Positions 32,152 to 40,792 of a stretch of 56,660 nt of DNA are shown piece by piece. Source of the stretch: Planctomycetota bacterium (GTDB taxonomy: Bacteria; Planctomycetota; UBA8108; UBA1146); the NCBI GenBank assembly GCA_014240375.1, contig JAAZXB010000019.1, forward strand, positions 1-56,660. The letters run 5' to 3'. The first letter of the stretch is position 1. Each line of letters opens with the position of its first letter. A program made the translations under genes and the position numbers. The notes under the pieces were generated by a model. That model had not been told where the DNA came from. It saw nothing but the letters and a program-made list of their open reading frames with translations, and ran no database searches.

Positions 32152-33921
32152 TTGGACCAGTTCTGGAAATTCATCGAAGAGATTGGCGCGTTGATCTGGA
32201 GTCCTCCGACCTTCATCGGGTTGCTGGGGGCAGGAGTGCTCTTCACCGTGTGGAGTCGATTTACCCAGTATCGGGTGATGACTCACGGCATCGATGTGAT
32301 TCGAGGGATCTACGACGATCCCGATGATCCGGGAGCGATCAGCCACTTCCAGGCGCTGTCGGCGGCTCTGTCGGCGACGGTCGGTCTCGGTAACATCGGT
32401 GGCGTGGCGCTGGCGATCTCGCTCGGTGGGCCGGGAGCACTCTTCTGGATGTGGGTGGTCGGTTTCTTCGGCATGGCGCTCAAGACCATCGAGATCACCC
32501 TGGCGATGATGTTTCGCGACACCTCCGATCCTGACAACCCGAGTGGTGGAGCGATGCATGTCGTACGCCATGTGATGGGTAAGAAGGGTGGTATGTGGGC
32601 GACGATGGGAAGCGTCATCGGAGGCATCTTCTGTGTCACCCTGATCATCTCCACCATTACCGGCGGCAACATGTTCCAGTCGTGGAATGTCGCCCTTCTG
32701 ACCCAGAGTTACTTCGGAGTGCCGAAGATCGCCACCGGCATCATCCTGGCACTGGTCGTGGGGATGGTGATCATCGGAGGCATTCGACGCATCGGTACGG
32801 TGGCCGGGAAGCTGGTGCCGCTGATGTGCTTGCTGTATCTGTTGGCTGGCCTTGCGGTGCTGGTGGTGAAGGCGGGCGAGATTCCGGCGACCTTTGCGCT
32901 GATCTTCCAGAGTGCCTTTGCGCCGCTCGAATCGCAGGGAGCCTTTGTCGGGGGGACGCTGGGCTTTGCCTTCATGGTTGGCATGAAGCGGGCGCTCTTC
33001 TCCAACGAGGCGGGGCAGGGATCAGCCCCCATCGCCCACGCAGCAGCCAAGACGGCGGAGCCCGCCCGGGAGGGGATCGTCGGCGGCATCGGCCCCTTCA
33101 TCGACACCATCTGTATCTGCACCCTCACCGCACTGGTGATCCTCACCACCGGAACCTGGAATCGAGAGGCGATCGGACCGCTCGGCGCCGAAGTGCAACT
33201 CGTCGTGGCGGCCGAGAGTGATGACGCATTTCACTACGATGTGGACACCAACGCATCGATCAGTGATCTCCCCAATCCGTTGCATGGTCCCTGGTCGAAG
33301 GGAGACAAGGTCTTCCTGCTCGCCGATGTGACCGGGCTCACGAGTAAAAATACCGGAGGATCGACGCTCAAGATCCAGGGCAAGATCGTTGCGAATGAGG
33401 CCAAACCGGATGCTGCAGAAATCCTGGCCATCGAGTGGAAGGCCGTGGAACTGACCAAGAGTATCTGGGATGGAGTTCCCGGAGAGATCCATATCCAGCA
33501 GGTCGAAGGTGGCGGTGCGGGGGTCTTCAAGGAGCATGAGGGAGCGCAGTTGACGGCGATCGCCTTTGACCGTGTCTTCGATGGGCTCGGCAAATACCTG
33601 GTGACCCTGGCGGCGTGGCTCTTTGCCATCTCGACGATGATTTCCTGGTCCTACTACGGCGAGAAGGGAGTCACTTACCTGTTCGGAAATGCCGGTGTAC
33701 TTCCCTACAAGATCGCATTCTTGATCCTCGCCATCGTCGGAGCCACCAGCATCGATGACACCACGCAGATGCTATTGCTGGCAGATCTTGGAACCGGCAC
33801 GATGTTGGTGGTCAACATCCCCATCGTGATCCTGCTCGGCGGCCTGGCGGTGGCTTCACTGCGAGAGTACGACCGCAAGTTGAAGGCGGGAGAGTTCCCC
33901 CGAAACGATCAGAAAGAGTAG
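32152..33921 (+). CDS. Sodium:alanine/glycine symporter (AGCS family) with a large inserted hydrophilic domain
   Basis: I chose TTG 32152 because GGAAGGAA precedes it and residues after it start with the usual AGCS N-terminus; the frame upstream encodes unrelated sequence. 589 residues with about ten transmembrane helices. Family segments: SATVGLGNIGGVALAI, KRALFSNEAGQGSAPIAHAA and SWSYYGEKGVTYLFG. Between TGTWN (about 333) and GAQLTAIAF (about 463) there is a hydrophilic stretch of roughly 120 residues not found in typical AGCS proteins (which are about 450-480 long). Imports small neutral amino acids with sodium. Its gene follows a threonine/serine dehydratase. Confidence 0.88.
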   Translation: MDQFWKFIEEIGALIWSPPTFIGLLGAGVLFTVWSRFTQYRVMTHGIDVIRGIYDDPDDPGAISHFQALSAALSATVGLGNIGGVALAISLGGPGALFWMWVVGFFGMALKTIEITLAMMFRDTSDPDNPSGGAMHVVRHVMGKKGGMWATMGSVIGGIFCVTLIISTITGGNMFQSWNVALLTQSYFGVPKIATGIILALVVGMVIIGGIRRIGTVAGKLVPLMCLLYLLAGLAVLVVKAGEIPATFALIFQSAFAPLESQGAFVGGTLGFAFMVGMKRALFSNEAGQGSAPIAHAAAKTAEPAREGIVGGIGPFIDTICICTLTALVILTTGTWNREAIGPLGAEVQLVVAAESDDAFHYDVDTNASISDLPNPLHGPWSKGDKVFLLADVTGLTSKNTGGSTLKIQGKIVANEAKPDAAEILAIEWKAVELTKSIWDGVPGEIHIQQVEGGGAGVFKEHEGAQLTAIAFDRVFDGLGKYLVTLAAWLFAISTMISWSYYGEKGVTYLFGNAGVLPYKIAFLILAIVGATSIDDTTQMLLLADLGTGTMLVVNIPIVILLGGLAVASLREYDRKLKAGEFPRNDQKE

Positions 33922-34003
33922 TGAGGGACGAGCGACGTATAGAGGGAGCGTGAGGTGCCGGAAGCGTGAAACCGAGTGGCAAGCCGGGGCTTGAAATGCT
34001 CGA

Positions 34004-34105
34004 GCCAGGAGGCAGGTGAAGCCAGGAGGCAGGTGAAGCCAGGAGGCAGGTGAAGCCAGGAGGCAGGTGAAGCCAGGAGGCCGGTGAAGCCAGGAGGCCG
34101 GTGAA
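34004..34105. repeat. 6 x 17-bp tandem repeat
   Basis: Six copies of GCCAGGAGGCAGGTGAA; copies 5 and 6 share one A-to-C change. Noncoding. The 17-bp unit is one of the few in the window that is not a multiple of three. Confidence 0.93.
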
Positions 34106-34164
34106 GCCAGGGCGCCGCTTCTTCCGTCGGGATTGGACGAACGAGCCGGTCGGCCTGGCTGTTC

Positions 34165-34227
34165 GGGCAGATCGGGCAGATCGGGCAGATCGGGCAGTTC
34201 GGGCAGTTCGGGCAGTTCGGGCAGTTC
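34165..34227. repeat. 7 x 9-bp tandem repeat
   Basis: Three copies of GGGCAGATC followed by four of GGGCAGTTC, directly before a poly-A tract. Confidence 0.93.
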
Positions 34228-34233
34228 GGGCAC

Positions 34234-34635: not shown

Positions 34636-35955
34636 TCAGGGTTTCTGCGGCACAGGTTTCTGCGGCACAGGTTTCTGCGGCACAGGTTTCTGCGGCACAG
34701 GTTTCTGCGGCACAGGTTTCTTGACTCCCGCTTGCGGCTGGCCCGTCTTCAACCCTGGCCACGGCTTGGCCGAGGGAGACGGCTTGGCCGTGGGCGCAGG
34801 CTTCTGCCCCGGAGGGGCCGGCTTGGCCGTCGGAGTCACCTTGCGCCTCGGTAGCGGTGGCAGGGAAGCGCCGCCACCACGAGTCGGAGGGGGCGCAAAC
34901 TGTGCATATAGACGTGCGGTGAGCTCTGGCATCCCCTCGAGATCGGTCTGAATTCTCAAGGTGCCTCGAATCGATCGCTCGGGGCGGCTCTGCAACACTT
35001 CGACCGAGATCACGAAACGTTCGGATTCGCGAATCACCCGTTGAGTGACACCGAACACGCCCTCGGGCACATCATCGATGGAGATACTCTTGATATTGAA
35101 GCGGGTTCCGGGGCTGGTGGCGAAGACCTGGATGTCTTTCTTGACCACGGCAGCACCGGGTACCGAGAGGCGCTCGGTCTCCTTGCGCTGGAACACGATG
35201 TTGCCGCGAGGAACGATGGTGATGGGGGACTGGTGATCCAGGGTCAGCGGAACGGTGGTGGTGCGCAATTCTCCGTCACTGCAAACCACCTCGACATTGA
35301 CAATATCCCGGGTCATTCCGGCGATCAGCGCCGCAGGTGCGGTGAGGTGGATCTGGTACTTCTCACCTTCCACGACTTCGACGATCTGATCGAGATCGGC
35401 CTGGTTCTTGTTGACGGTCACCTCGGTGACTGTGATTCCCAGTTCGGTTCCCCTCGACACCTCGAACATACCGGAGAGCGGCTCTCCCACCGGACCCCTG
35501 AGGATCAGTGCATTGGGAGTGGACTTGATCACCTGGCGCAGGATGCCATGGATGTTGAGGCGGATACTGGGTTGCCGAGGATCGTTACAACTGACGGTAG
35601 CGTACTTCCGTACCGTTTCGGTGCGCAATTTGGAGGTGTCGACGCTGAGGGTGATTTCGCCCTCCCCACCGGGGAGAACTTCGCGGGTGAAAGTCCCGCG
35701 ACTGCAGCCTCAGCCAGGCTTTACATTGGTAATTCGGAGTACCGAGGAGCCGGTGTTGGTGAAGCGGTAGGTGTGTTCCACCTTGGTGCCTTGAAGCACG
35801 GTGCCCCAGTCATGGGTCAGTTGGTCGAAGGAGATGCGTGGACCGACCTCCGCCGGGGGAGGTGGAGGACCGAGGTCATCATCGCTCAGTTGGAAGGCAG
35901 AAAGGGGTAAGCCCGCTGCGATGGTCAGGAGAACTCCCAGGATTGTTTTTTTCAC
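34636..35955 (-). CDS. Exported DUF1573 protein, candidate selenoprotein (in-frame TGA at 35712-35710)
   Basis: Reading through one TGA gives a 439-residue protein from GTG 35955 (AGAGG about 11 nt upstream; ATG 35973 is an alternative). A signal peptide (KKTILGVLLTIAAGLPLSA) precedes a DUF1573 domain with FDQLTHDWGTVLQG. The TGA is codon 82, in NVKPG-U-GCSRGTF; the neighbouring paralogue has KVTSTCGCTSTRF here, so the TGA replaces the first Cys of CGC. The frame and family similarity continue unbroken for 357 codons after it. A perfect 7-bp stem-loop lies 9-29 nt beyond the TGA. The C-terminus is Pro/Lys-rich and ends in five VPQKP repeats. The gene itself stops at TGA, so reassignment of TGA to another amino acid is excluded. 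Function is unknown; thiol/selenol redox or metal binding is inferred. Confidence 0.82.
34641..34715. repeat. 5 x 15-bp tandem repeat encoding VPQKP
   Basis: Five exact copies of GTTTCTGCGGCACAG in the last codons of the DUF1573 selenoprotein gene; each adds the pentapeptide VPQKP to the C-terminus. Confidence 0.93.
35681..35701 (-). promoter_or_regulatory. Candidate SECIS stem-loop (DUF1573 gene)
   Basis: TCGCGGG and CCCGCGA form a perfect 7-bp stem with a 7-nt loop. The stem begins 9 nt after the TGA and the loop covers nt 16-22, inside the distance window of bacterial SECIS elements. If the closing G-C pair opens, the loop starts with G. It lies inside the coding sequence, as bacterial SECIS elements do. 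Confidence 0.65.
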
Positions 35956-36114
35956 CGAAAATCTGCCTCTCATGTGGTGGATCGCCAACGGGCTCCGATT
36001 TCCTGCGCTGGAAGACCGAGGTCGACTCGGGTCCAGACGTCAGGGAACAGTGGACGATCACCCTTAAAGATAACGGGAGAAGGCGCTTGGGGTCAAGTGG
36101 TCTGGGAGTCCGGA

Positions 36115-37305
36115 TCAGGGCGAATCGGGCTTTCTGAGCCGAAACTGAGCGATGATCGGCTTTTCCCTCACCTGATCTTCTCCCTCCCCGATGCGAATCC
36201 GAAGTGTGCCCTTGGCCTGGGAGAGGGGGTGGACCTTCAGCACATCGATGCGCAACTTGTAGTGATGTCCGGGCAAGACTTCGGTGATGATCAGGCCAAA
36301 GAGCCCCTCGGGGGCATCGATGATCTCTGCCGAGAAGGTCTCGAAGGGGAGGTCGTCGCGCACCGAGCGGACCTGCACCTCTTGCTTCACCTCACGCCGT
36401 ACCGGTCCATCGAGCGGTGCGGTATGTCTGCGATAGAACACGACATTGCCATTGGGGATCATCTGGACCCGATCCAGGTGAACGACCACCACCGGCAATG
36501 GAATCTTCAGCTCTTTCTGGTCCTCCAGCAGCAGTGACAGTTCCAGATCGTCTCTGAGGCTTCCCATCGTCTCGGAAGGTCCCGCTTCCAGGGTCAGACT
36601 CCAGCCCTTCTGGCCATCCTCGAGGGGGTCGATCGAGACCACCGAAAAGGAGCCGTTCTTGGAGCGCGCACCGGTCACCTCCAGTGGAAGTTCGGTGGCG
36701 GGCAGGATCGTGGTGGTCAGTCGCTTCGATTCGAAGGAGAGCCCCTCGAGTTTCAGGACCTTTTTCTCGAAGTGGAGCAATGGATCGACCAGTCCTGTCA
36801 TCCACAGTTGAATCTGTGGAGACTCCGGATCACTGGTCTGGACGAGAGCATTTTTTCGTGGACGACCCCCACTGAAATCGGTGGTGTCGACCTGTAGTTC
36901 GATGATGCCGACCGCACCGACCTCGATCCACTGATCGAAGCGAGTCGAGGTGCAGCCACAGGTGGAAGTCACCTTGAGGATTCTCAGCGGTGCCTTGCCA
37001 TGGTTCTCGACCTCGAAGGAGTGCTTGACCAGGCTCCCCTGGAGCACGGTGCCCCAGTCATGCTCCGTCTCGCCGAGGTGGATCACCGGCGCAGGGCCGA
37101 TCGGGAACGGAACTGGCGGTGGTGGATCTTGAGCCGCAATCAGGGTGACCGGCAGCCGCAGAAGAAGCAGAAGAAGCAGCAGTAGCGGGGCAGCGTTCCA
37201 CCACCCCGATGGAGGACTCGATTTCTGGAGGATCAGGTCTGGATTCGAGTTCGAGGAAGCACGGATCTGCGGGACTTGACGAGAATCGGCGGCTCTGAAA
37301 GTCAT
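36115..37305 (-). CDS. Exported DUF1573 protein with normal CGC motif
   Basis: 396 residues; AGGAG precedes ATG 37305 by about 11 nt. A long basic/polar N-terminus leads to a Leu9 signal core (residues 41-49) and likely export. Residues about 75-160 are DUF1573: TEHDWGTVLQG, then KVTSTCGCTSTRF with Cys116 and Cys118. Later segments resemble the C-terminal half of the neighbouring selenoprotein (PNGNVVFYRR here, PRGNIVFQRK there; DAPEGLFGL and DVPEGVFGV), so the two genes are full-length paralogues and only one uses TGA at the motif. It is divergent from the thioredoxin-like selenoprotein and probably cotranscribed with the DUF1573 selenoprotein 160 bp downstream. Confidence 0.85.
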   Translation of the reverse strand: MTFRAADSRQVPQIRASSNSNPDLILQKSSPPSGWWNAAPLLLLLLLLLRLPVTLIAAQDPPPPVPFPIGPAPVIHLGETEHDWGTVLQGSLVKHSFEVENHGKAPLRILKVTSTCGCTSTRFDQWIEVGAVGIIELQVDTTDFSGGRPRKNALVQTSDPESPQIQLWMTGLVDPLLHFEKKVLKLEGLSFESKRLTTTILPATELPLEVTGARSKNGSFSVVSIDPLEDGQKGWSLTLEAGPSETMGSLRDDLELSLLLEDQKELKIPLPVVVVHLDRVQMIPNGNVVFYRRHTAPLDGPVRREVKQEVQVRSVRDDLPFETFSAEIIDAPEGLFGLIITEVLPGHHYKLRIDVLKVHPLSQAKGTLRIRIGEGEDQVREKPIIAQFRLRKPDSP

Positions 37306-37513: not shown

Positions 37514-38509
37514 ATGTTAAAGAGAATCATGACTCGAAGCAGCGCGCTGGCGATCGCCATCCTGTTGCTCTCGAGTATTCCTGCGGATGCCGGTTCCGAG
37601 GTGGGGGATGTCGCTCCTGCTCTGAACGCAGGAGGTTGGATCAATATCGATACCAACACCTCCTGGGATTCGCTCCAGGGGAAATTGATCCTGATCGAAA
37701 AATGGGCCACCTGGTGAGGACCTTGCAAGGGCCAGATTCCGCACTTGAATCAATTCCATAAGGAGTTCAAGGATCGCGGACTGGTTGTCATCGGGGTCAC
37801 CGATGAATCTGAATCCAAGGCGAAGCCCTACATCGAGCGCAACAAGATGCAGTACCCGGTTGCTTTTGGTGGTGGCGCGAAAGAGTACAAGACCCGTGGG
37901 ATTCCCCACTCCTGGTTAGTCGGTCCGGGCGGAAAGATCGTCTGGAAGGGTCATCCCGGAGGTCTCAATGCGTCCATCATCGAGAAACACATCGAAGGTG
38001 CCCGCATGGGACCGAAGATCAGTCTGCCCCCGCAACTGGTGAAGAGTGAGAAGTATCTCAAGGTGGGCCAGTTTGGTAAGGCCTACAAAGATCTGGAGAA
38101 GCAAGCGGGCCGTGCCAAGGATCCAGCAGTGGAAAAGGCCGCTCGTGAGGCGATGCAAAAGATTGCCGAGTTCGCATCGGTTGAACTCTCCCGGGTCGCT
38201 CAGTTCAAGAAGGAGCACAAGTATTCGGCGGGCTTGCAGGCGCTACAGCGCGGCACCGTCTCCTTCAAGGGGATGACGATTGCCAAGGAGTTCGAAAAGG
38301 AACTGAAGGCGTGGAAGAAGGACAAGTCGATCCAGGCGGAGATGGCCGGAGGTGCGATGCTCGATGAAGCCAAGGACCTGGTCAAACGAGGCCAGTACGA
38401 AAAAGCAGCCAAGATTTACGCGACTCTGGTAAAGAGCAAGAAATACGCAGGATCGGAAGCCCAGAAGGAAGCGGAAATTCGCCTTCAGGAGATCAAGAAG
38501 TACCTCTAG
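37514..38509 (+). CDS. Exported thioredoxin-like (TlpA/ResA-type) selenoprotein candidate, Sec-Gly-Pro-Cys (TGA at 37715-37717)
   Basis: The ATG at 37514 follows AAAGGAG. Reading one TGA through gives 331 residues: signal peptide (1-26), thioredoxin-like domain (about 27-170) and a Lys-rich helical tail with TPR-like spacing (about 175-331). The TGA is codon 68 in KWATW-U-GPCKGQIP, the position of the first Cys of the WCxPC redox motif; the resolving Cys71 is present. Sequence after the TGA fits the family (VVIGVTDE, the cis-Pro segment TRGIPHSWLV, GPGGKIVWKGHPGG). Both halves are in the same frame, and the downstream half has no ribosome-binding site of its own. A stem-loop follows 18-34 nt after the TGA. 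A periplasmic reductase or peroxidase-like selenol enzyme is inferred. Confidence 0.88.
37735..37751 (+). promoter_or_regulatory. Candidate SECIS stem-loop (thioredoxin-like gene)
   Basis: GATTC and GAATC form a perfect 5-bp stem with loop CGCACTT; the stem starts 18 nt after the TGA and the loop covers nt 23-29. The second loop base is G, as common in bacterial SECIS loops. Outer GG/CC pairs (37730-37731 with 37756-37757) could extend it. The stem is short, so the evidence is moderate. Confidence 0.5.
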
Positions 38510-38598: not shown

Positions 38599-39591
38599 TC
38601 AGGGACGCACGCGGTCGATCAGGTCGACCACGCGGCTCGAGTATCCCCATTCATTGTCGTACCAGGAGAGGATCTTGGCGGAGTGAGTTCCAATGGTGGT
38701 CGTCAGCCTTGAATCGAAGATGGAAGAATGAGGGTTTCCGATGATGTCAGAGGAGACCACCGCGTCGGTGCAGTACTGGAGAACTCCTCGCATCGGACCC
38801 TCGGCAGCTTCTTTCACCGCCGCATTGATCTCCTCGACCGAGACCGGGTTCTTGAAGGTGGCCACGAGATCCACCACGGAACCATTGATCACCGGGACTC
38901 GCATCGCCATACCATCGAGTTTTCCCTCCAACTGGGGCAGTACCTTTCCGACGGCCCGGGCCGCACCTGTCGAGGTGGGAATGGTGTTCTCACCGGCGGC
39001 ACGACTTCGACGGAGATCCTGGTGATACCAGTCCGCCAGACTCTGGTCATTGGTATAGGCGTGCACCGTGGTCATCACTCCACGGATCAGAGCGAATTTG
39101 TCATCCAGCACCTTGGCCACCGGAGCCAGGCAGTTGGTGGTACAGGAAGCATTCGAGATGATTTGATGTTCAGGTTTGAGAATCTCGTCGTTGACTCCGA
39201 GTACCAGTAATGCATCGATGTCGTCCTTGGGAGGGACGGTGAGGATGACCTTTTTTGCACCTGCAGTGATGTGCATCTGGCACTCTTCACGGGTGCGAAA
39301 GCGTCCGGTGGATTCGACGACCACATCGACCCCGAGGTCTTTCCAGGGCAGTTGAGCAGGGTCCTTCTCGGCCAGCATCTGGCAGCGCTGGCGTCCGGCA
39401 GAGATGACCCCGGAATCGAGGGACACCGGTTCAGGAAAGGGTCCCATCACCGAGTCGTAGCGCAGCAGGTAAGCGAGGGAGTCGGGATCAGAGATGTCGT
39501 TGATGGCGACGATATCGATGTCAGTGCGATCGGATGCGATTCTGAAGACACTTCTCCCGATGCGCCCGAATCCATTGATGGCGATCTTCAT
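38599..39591 (-). CDS. gapA: Glyceraldehyde-3-phosphate dehydrogenase
   Basis: 330 residues of normal GAPDH length. NAD-binding INGFGRIGRSVFR at the N-terminus; catalytic motif SNASCTTNC with Cys150 and His177 in HAYT; phosphate-site Arg in MRVPV; C-terminal WYDNEWGYSSRV. Interconverts glyceraldehyde 3-phosphate and 1,3-bisphosphoglycerate. Its start overlaps the stop of a second GAPDH-like gene by 4 nt, so the paralogues are co-translated. Confidence 0.94.
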   Translation of the reverse strand: MKIAINGFGRIGRSVFRIASDRTDIDIVAINDISDPDSLAYLLRYDSVMGPFPEPVSLDSGVISAGRQRCQMLAEKDPAQLPWKDLGVDVVVESTGRFRTREECQMHITAGAKKVILTVPPKDDIDALLVLGVNDEILKPEHQIISNASCTTNCLAPVAKVLDDKFALIRGVMTTVHAYTNDQSLADWYHQDLRRSRAAGENTIPTSTGAARAVGKVLPQLEGKLDGMAMRVPVINGSVVDLVATFKNPVSVEEINAAVKEAAEGPMRGVLQYCTDAVVSSDIIGNPHSSIFDSRLTTTIGTHSAKILSWYDNEWGYSSRVVDLIDRVRP

Positions 39592-40622
39592 GAATCTCTC
39601 CTCTCTCCTTCGTTCGGGGTCCTGGATCCGATGTGAGCGGCAAGTTCGACGATCCTGTGAGAGATTCCGCCGCCCTGCTCGTACCAGCCAAGGACCTTGA
39701 GAAGAACTCCATCCGTGACCAGAGTTGCGAGGCTATCAAAGACGCAGGATGCAGAGTTGCCGCCGATGTCGCTGGAGACGATCGGTTGGTCGGTGTAGGA
39801 GAGATACCCCTTGTGAATACTGGCGGCAGCGCTGCGGAACACCTCGTTCACCTCTGCTGCTACCACGGACTTTTTCATCTGCAAGGTCAGGTCGGTGCAG
39901 GAGACGCCGGGAACCGGCACGTTCAACTTGATCCCCTTGAACTTCCCCCGCAGGTGAGGGAATAACTGTTCGATGGCCTCGTCGGTCCAGGTGGTCTGAG
40001 GGACGATATTCTGCATCGCTGCGCGGGAACTTCGTAGATCCCCCCGAGCAGGAACATCGGTAAGGCTCTGTTCGGAGGTGTACGCATGGACCGAGGTGAA
40101 GGATCCCTCCTCGACTCCGAACGCATCGTCGAGAACCTTGACCAGCAGTGCGGTGGCATTGGCCGTCGATGATCCGCACGAGATGATCCGATTCGATCGG
40201 TCGACATCCGAGGGCGTCACCCCCTGGATGTGAAGGTGGTCGATATCGTCGGTCGGTGGGGTCGAAAGGATCACTCGATCCGCCCCTTGATCCAGATGTT
40301 TCTGGAGTTCGTGGCGTGCTCGAAACTTACCGGTGGCTTCTATCACCACATCGACGCCATGGTCATACCAGGGGATCTCTCCGGGCTCTCGGTGGTGCAA
40401 GACCTGGATCTGTTTGCCTCCGGCGTAGATCGAGTCATCGAGGATGCGGATCGGCTCTGCGAAGGGGCCTCGCAAGGAGTCGAATCGGAGCAGGTACTCC
40501 ATCGCATGGGTTTCTGCCAGTTCGTTGATCGCCACGATCTCGATGTCCTCACGGCCATAGACCGCCCTGAACACATTTCGACCGATTCGACCGAATCCCA
40601 TCAATCCAATTCGAACGCTCAT
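39588..40622 (-). CDS. Divergent GAPDH paralogue with altered phosphate-site residues
   Basis: 344 residues from ATG 40622 (CAGGAG upstream); an in-frame extension upstream lacks family match. The fold signatures are intact: LMGFGRIGRNVFRA, catalytic Cys149 and His179 (HAYTSEQS). But the SCTTNC motif reads SCGSST, and the MRVPV Arg segment is replaced by KLNVPVPGVSC, so two elements that bind the inorganic or substrate phosphate are changed. The C-terminus WYEQGGGISHR also differs from the normal WYDNEWGYS. Likely a dehydrogenase for another aldehyde, such as erythrose 4-phosphate, or a regulatory paralogue; the substrate is unknown. Confidence 0.85.
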   Translation of the reverse strand: MSVRIGLMGFGRIGRNVFRAVYGREDIEIVAINELAETHAMEYLLRFDSLRGPFAEPIRILDDSIYAGGKQIQVLHHREPGEIPWYDHGVDVVIEATGKFRARHELQKHLDQGADRVILSTPPTDDIDHLHIQGVTPSDVDRSNRIISCGSSTANATALLVKVLDDAFGVEEGSFTSVHAYTSEQSLTDVPARGDLRSSRAAMQNIVPQTTWTDEAIEQLFPHLRGKFKGIKLNVPVPGVSCTDLTLQMKKSVVAAEVNEVFRSAAASIHKGYLSYTDQPIVSSDIGGNSASCVFDSLATLVTDGVLLKVLGWYEQGGGISHRIVELAAHIGSRTPNEGERRDS

Positions 40623-40792
40623 CGCGAAACTCCTGTCCGGACATCCGGAATCCCAGTTGTTCCTGCTGGGCGCAGGCACCTGCGGGTTCCGGGTAGCGGT
40701 AGTTACGATCCCCAGACAGAATAGCGTCAACAAGAAAAAGGTCGAGGGATCCGCCAGCATCCGATGGGGCAATCCTCTGGCCATTCACCCGG

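What the first reader, a model, noticed from the sequence alone, without database searches (positions are those of the whole stretch)
34636..35955. DUF1573 protein with TGA in place of the first Cys of the CGC motif
Codon 82 is TGA in NVKPG-x-GCSRGTF. The adjacent paralogue (36115-37305) has TCGCT at the same aligned position, giving an in-window control. The reading frame stays open and paralogous for another 357 codons. The gene ends at an ordinary TGA stop, which excludes global TGA reassignment. A selenocysteine form of DUF1573 is, to my knowledge, not a standard selenoprotein family; this needs a literature check.
Basis: partly seen in the sequence, partly recalled or inferred. Interest (0 to 1): 0.93.

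Follow-up and report, generated by a model that had tools for sequence, protein, structure and literature searches.

The report
Selenocysteine form of a DUF1573 protein
This Planctomycetota gene carries an in-frame TGA, kept at the same spot in related bacteria, that is likely read as the rare amino acid selenocysteine in a predicted exported protein; selenium forms of this protein family are already listed in print, so it is a new member of a known kind.

Summary
Window 34636-35955(-) is a DUF1573 gene with one in-frame TGA on the first Cys of CGC; its neighbour 36115-37305 has Cys there. The selenocysteine reading is well supported. The genome holds selA, selB, selD (with its own in-frame TGA) and a tRNA-Sec with anticodon TCA. 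In the 16 genomes of the bacterial family, 27 of 71 DUF1573 matches have one TGA, always at this codon; none has TAA or TAG. Both sides of the TGA are under purifying selection. Synonymous codons are unusually conserved just after the TGA in two Sec groups but not in the Cys paralogue.

New here: two Sec paralogues in one Planctomycetota family, a Cys twin and a divergent Sec-thioredoxin beside this one, and truncated database copies. The SECIS hairpin by itself is inconclusive, and function (redox or metal) is inferred.

The parts
34636..35955 (-). Sec-DUF1573 gene (GTG start at 35955; an in-frame ATG at 35973 is an alternative): signal peptide by eye, three Ig-like domains in the model, Pro-rich tail
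   Evidence: signal peptide judged by eye
35710..35712 (-). in-frame TGA, codon 82, aligned with the first Cys of the CGC motif; likely read as selenocysteine
35671..35709 (-). about 13 codons after the TGA: hairpin TCGCGGG/CCCGCGA and high synonymous-codon conservation; putative bacterial SECIS (hairpin alone not significant)
36115..37305 (-). Cys-DUF1573 paralogue (CGC at the same column), next to it on the same strand
37514..38509 (+). divergent thioredoxin/ResA-like gene with an in-frame TGA at WATW-TGA-GPC (TGA at 37715-37717): a second putative selenoprotein

Best explanation
The gene is a DUF1573 gene whose in-frame TGA, on the first Cys of the CGC motif, is likely decoded as selenocysteine by the genome's own SelA/SelB/SelD/tRNA-Sec set, giving a predicted exported protein of three predicted Ig-like domains that would carry a Sec-Gly-Cys redox pair. 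Shown: the TGA and its conservation, the complete sel gene set, the Cys paralogue, purifying selection on both sides of the TGA, and extra synonymous constraint after it. Inferred: Sec insertion itself, helped by a SECIS in the codons after the TGA. Inferred and less sure: that Sec82 and Cys84, in a turn between two strands of the first Ig-like domain, form a selenenylsulfide that is reduced by a thiol (perhaps by the neighbouring Sec-thioredoxin), so that the protein is an envelope thiol/selenol carrier or sensor.
For: selA (529.7 bits), selB (390.9), selD (344, itself with TGA in ASCAG-TGA-AAKL) and tRNA-Sec with anticodon TCA in the same genome. 27 of 71 DUF1573 matches in 16 family genomes have TGA, all at this codon, no TAA/TAG. 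In a sample of 392 Planctomycetota genomes, 26 of 78 strong NF041425 matches have one TGA, 52 none; 25 of the 26 lie in this family, one in another family of the order, where the motif is U-S-C. Column 82 is Cys or TGA in 36 of 36 rows that reach it (8 of 44 rows, all truncated database proteins, are gapped there). Full-length Cys relatives with KPGCGC exist (P0016, P0019-P0021). Ka/Ks is 0.035-0.151 upstream (domain part, 5 of 7 pairs computable) and 0.038-0.252 downstream (7 of 7 pairs). Synonymous-codon identity in the 14 codons after the TGA: group A 0.746 against a gene mean of 0.459, group B 0.737 against 0.448, Cys paralogue 0.444 against 0.405. Rule-based hairpins are somewhat stronger in 24 Sec genes than in 600 background codons (p 0.0098). 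Structure model: U82 between strands 73-80 and 84-89.
Against: The hairpin is not more stable than in synonymous shuffles (mean z -0.80 in 24 Sec genes, -0.50 in 16 Cys genes, p 0.42). With bSECIS-like rules 56% of 600 background codons also pass the -7.5 kcal/mol limit (67% of Sec genes), and Sec and Cys genes do not differ clearly (p 0.13). The window hairpin has 14 nt before its loop, short of the 16-37 nt model. Pair changes give no clear covariation (48 of 500 shuffles as high). selB is below its cut-off in G007, which has two TGA genes. Nothing shows the redox role: the Ig-like fold is a scaffold fold, and the thioredoxin lies in a block whose other genes are conserved too and is not seen beside the G251 pair.
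Confidence: 0.88

Rival explanations
1. Selenocysteine is inserted, but Sec-Gly-Cys binds a soft metal ion (mercury, copper, silver) rather than doing thiol-disulfide exchange; the protein would be an envelope metal trap.
For: A C-x-C/U-x-C pair in a turn of an Ig-like scaffold suits binding as well as redox chemistry; some other selenoprotein families in the review tables bear metal-related names.
Against: No further conserved Cys ligands: Cys123 and Cys225 are invariant in the five-sequence group A alignment but not across 44 rows. A predicted redoxin with Sec lies next door.
Confidence: 0.25
2. The TGA is a true stop: the gene is broken or makes a short exported peptide, and the rest is a separate gene starting at an internal codon.
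For: An internal start (TTG 35628) opens a 330-aa frame, and public databases hold just such shortened proteins.
Against: The TGA splits one Ig-like domain; both halves are under purifying selection in pairs drawn from three genera; 27 of 71 family genes have TGA on the same Cys and none a TAA or TAG; a full sel set is present.
Confidence: 0.04
3. TGA is read through by an ordinary tRNA as Cys or Trp, or is a sequencing error.
For: None beyond the codon itself.
Against: Twelve genomes share the TGA in this orthologue; 13 of 21 chosen window frames end in TGA; the genome has tRNA-Sec.
Confidence: 0.03

Closest known systems
OS_HP2 / DUF1573 selenoprotein family (PF07610, motif UGC or UxC; NCBIfam NF041425), listed in PMC2398784, PMC9312934, PMC13188914
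   Same: Same domain, same Sec position as the printed motif UGC; NF041425 matches the window protein over residues 45-138 at E 1.3e-26
Cys-type DUF1573 proteins of Planctomycetota and other phyla (P0016, P0019-P0036)
   Same: Same domain; KPGCGC in P0016 and P0019-P0021, which are also similar in length
   Different: Cys instead of TGA; 36-38% identity for those four
ASH / HYDIN-type Ig-like domains (PF22544; VesC Ig domain 6bqm, HYDIN 2e6j)
   Different: A shared fold only; no function follows from it

Membership tests
DUF1573 (PF07610) | Pfam match over the gathering score | tested here: met
   69.3 bits, cut-off 26.1
DUF1573 selenoproteins as listed in reviews | TGA in place of the first Cys of CGC (UGC) | tested here: met
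   motif given as UGC
DUF1573 selenoproteins as listed in reviews | Sec synthesis and insertion genes in the same genome | tested here: met
   selA, selB, selD, tRNA-Sec
DUF1573 selenoproteins as listed in reviews | bacterial SECIS hairpin downstream (loop 3-9 nt, stem 4-16 bp, G in first two loop positions, spacing 16-37 nt, MFE <= -7.5) | tested here: inconclusive
   loop, stem, G and energy fit (-10.5 kcal/mol) but 14 nt before the loop; rule not specific here; synonymous conservation supports an RNA element
DUF1573 selenoproteins as listed in reviews | selenium in the mature protein | not testable with these tools
   needs mass spectrometry or 75Se
NCBIfam NF041425 OS_HP2_seleno | score over the curated cut-off of 100 bits | tested here: not met
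   92.8 bits; paralogue 85.7; C42 gene 94.2
ResA/TlpA thiol-disulfide oxidoreductase (neighbour 37514-38509) | NCBIfam ResA model NF002854 over cut-off | tested here: not met
   64.5 bits, cut-off 170; Pfam AhpC-TSA, Redoxin and Thioredoxin are over their cut-offs

The most novel reading that the evidence does not exclude
The three neighbouring genes form one envelope selenol relay: a Sec-thioredoxin (WUGPC) that reduces a Sec-Gly-Cys carrier built on an Ig-like scaffold, with a Cys twin as its sulfur backup. That would be a non-enzymatic scaffold turned into a dedicated selenium electron carrier, which would give the unknown-function DUF1573 family a role.
Probability: 0.25. Interest if true: 0.65.

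Novelty: new member of a known kind. Interest (0 to 1): 0.42.

Why it matters
DUF1573 is a bacterial domain that Pfam still labels as of unknown function. A Planctomycetota family that keeps Sec at one column in two paralogues, beside a Cys twin in the same genome, marks that Cys as probably reactive and gives a natural Sec/Cys pair to test. It also shows that public records hold these proteins cut short at the TGA, so surveys by annotation will miss them.

Tried and rejected
SECIS by folding energy: shuffles with synonymous codons gave no excess stability, a rule-based search was too unspecific in this G+C-rich DNA, pair counting gave one compensated cell only. In one search the slice for the thioredoxin was one base off, so its value is not used. 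Synonymous conservation was the useful test; for the thioredoxin it was only slightly raised (0.598 against 0.516; 51 of 310 windows as high).

Function from neighbours: the thioredoxin lies beside the Cys-DUF1573 in 14 of 14 genomes that have it (of 16 searched). But of the 13 relatives compared, all 13 also keep both GAPDH-like genes and 7 keep the symporter-like gene in place (the other stretches end at or near a contig end), so the order says little about function. The names GAPDH, symporter, transketolase and lyase are my reading of the sequences, not a family search. In G251 the DUF1573 pair has no such thioredoxin in the 14.9 kb read. G015 lacks the A, B and C genes and the thioredoxin, yet has selB; this may be common loss or an assembly gap.

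Tree of Sec and Cys forms: one search had three rows read in a wrong frame (F_G002C307, O_G077, O_G145) and was redone. The Sec label needs three changes on 40 rows, in three places (group A, group B, G251); one origin with losses is not ruled out, and ten rows have long branches.

Rows dropped or special: one search used 7 of 12 group A, 7 of 15 group B and 6 Cys paralogue genes, to avoid near-copies (one group B entry had no coordinates and was removed in the script). One search listed 40 distinct genes (24 TGA, 16 Cys) after merging copies that are identical around the motif and leaving out matches that lack its motif pattern. One search's longer matches list TAA or TAG in nine rows; all nine were checked and the stop lies at the gene's own end, far behind the CxC motif. 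One search's 'one TGA' for a G230 gene and for the second G251 gene is likewise the ordinary end stop.

Literature: searches for DUF1573, OS_HP2, and Planctomycetes/Planctomycetota with selenoprotein listed no paper on this Planctomycetota pair or its thioredoxin neighbour. PMC4807772 (passages) does report selenoproteins in two other planctomycetes; DUF1573 is not named in its main text and its table of candidates (a supplement) was not seen. The original 2007 paper is not held, so I rely on the later papers. Seen as passages only: PMC9312934, PMC13188914, PMC2398784, PMC4807772; all others only as search listings.

Full report
What is there. On the minus strand at 34636-35955 a frame of 440 codons holds one internal TGA, codon 82, in NVKPG-TGA-GCSRGTF, then 357 sense codons and a TGA stop. 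The next gene upstream on the same strand, 36115-37305, is a paralogue with TSTCGCTST at that place. Pfam DUF1573 spans the TGA. The start may be the GTG at 35955 or an in-frame ATG at 35973. The N-terminus looks like a signal peptide (judged by eye, no tool).

The host can make selenocysteine. The window is contig C31 of a 3.39 Mb assembly. The same assembly holds selA (529.7 bits), selB (390.9 bits), selD (344 bits) and a tRNA-Sec with anticodon TCA; selA, selD and the tRNA gene are neighbours on C32. selD itself has an in-frame TGA at ASCAG-TGA-AAKL. Of 21 window frames that I chose as likely genes, 13 end in TGA, so the code is not changed as a whole. Four same-genus genomes were listed; the contigs of three have the length and match of records titled Planctomycetota bacterium, the fourth that of a record titled Bacillota bacterium.

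The TGA is conserved. In 16 genomes of the bacterial family, 71 DUF1573 matches were found, 27 with one TGA and 44 without a stop; none has TAA or TAG (rows counted by hand). All 27 have the TGA on the first Cys of CGC. They fall in two groups: A (this gene, 12 genomes) and B (on contig C42 in this genome, 15 genomes); 15 of 16 genomes have at least one. In a sample of 392 Planctomycetota genomes searched with NF041425, 78 matches in 45 genomes passed E 1e-22: 26 with one TGA, 52 without, none with TAA or TAG (counted by hand). 25 of the 26 are in this family; one, G251 of the same order, reads NNVKPG-TGA-SCTAL. In an alignment of 44 relatives, column 82 is Cys or TGA in all 36 rows that reach it; the 8 gapped rows are truncated database proteins. 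Selection on the protein is purifying on both sides of the TGA in the pairs that could be computed. This makes sequencing error and a true stop very unlikely.

An RNA signal. In group A (7 genes) synonymous codons are identical in 74.6% of comparable pairs over the 14 codons after the TGA, against a gene mean of 45.9%; 15 of 334 windows reach this value, and the eight highest start between 3 codons before and 7 after the first codon behind the TGA. In group B (7 genes) the figures are 73.7%, 44.8% and 4 of 317. In the Cys paralogue (6 genes) they are 44.4%, 40.5% and 106 of 320. So the excess goes with TGA, not with the place in the gene. A hairpin lies there, but folding tests are weak or negative: synonymous shuffles, a rule-based search that 56% of 600 background codons pass, with Sec genes better than background (p 0.0098) but not clearly than Cys genes (p 0.13), and covariation. 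Its loop begins 14 nt after the TGA, under the 16-37 nt of the published model. I therefore call the SECIS putative.

Known or new. Two reviews list 'DUF1573 domain-containing protein, pfam07610/PF07610, UGC' as a selenoprotein family, and the 2008 ocean survey lists OS_HP2, pfam07610, UxC. NCBIfam NF041425 'OS_HP2 family (seleno)protein' matches the window protein at 92.8 bits, just under its cut-off of 100. Of 18 database homologues, 15 (P0001-P0015) have 270-336 aa and no Pfam domain; nine of these were checked and lack the part up to the TGA (P0002 read; P0001, P0003-P0006, P0008, P0014, P0015).

Surroundings. A divergent gene at 37514-38509 is thioredoxin-like with WATW-TGA-GPC. It is in 14 of 16 family genomes, always with one TGA, and always beside the Cys-DUF1573. 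The neighbourhood as a whole is conserved, however, so this is a hint, not evidence, of a shared job.

Noticed in passing
window 37514-38509 (+), TGA at 37715-37717: Thioredoxin/ResA-like gene with TGA in place of the first Cys of WCGPC; a second putative selenoprotein in the window, present with TGA in 14 of 16 family genomes.
   Followed up: partly
L001/L006 (contig C42 of the same genome), TGA codon at L001:1600: A second Sec-type DUF1573 (NGT-TGA-GCLV) on another contig; its group is seen in 15 of 16 family genomes.
   Followed up: yes
L015 (contig C32:222151-223074): selD with an in-frame TGA (ASCAG-TGA-AAKL), next to selA and tRNA-Sec.
   Followed up: partly
   Followed up: no
G015 (same family): Lacks both Sec-DUF1573 groups, the Cys twin and the Sec-thioredoxin, yet keeps selB.
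   Followed up: no
window 38599-39591 and 39588-40784 (-): Two adjacent frames overlapping by 4 bases that look like glyceraldehyde-3-phosphate dehydrogenases (name from reading the sequence, no family search); both kept in order in 13 of 13 relatives compared.
   Followed up: no
window 34640-34720 and about 33900-34230: Short repeats: QKPVP repeats at the end of the DUF1573 gene, and a repetitive-looking stretch between it and the symporter-like gene.
   Followed up: no
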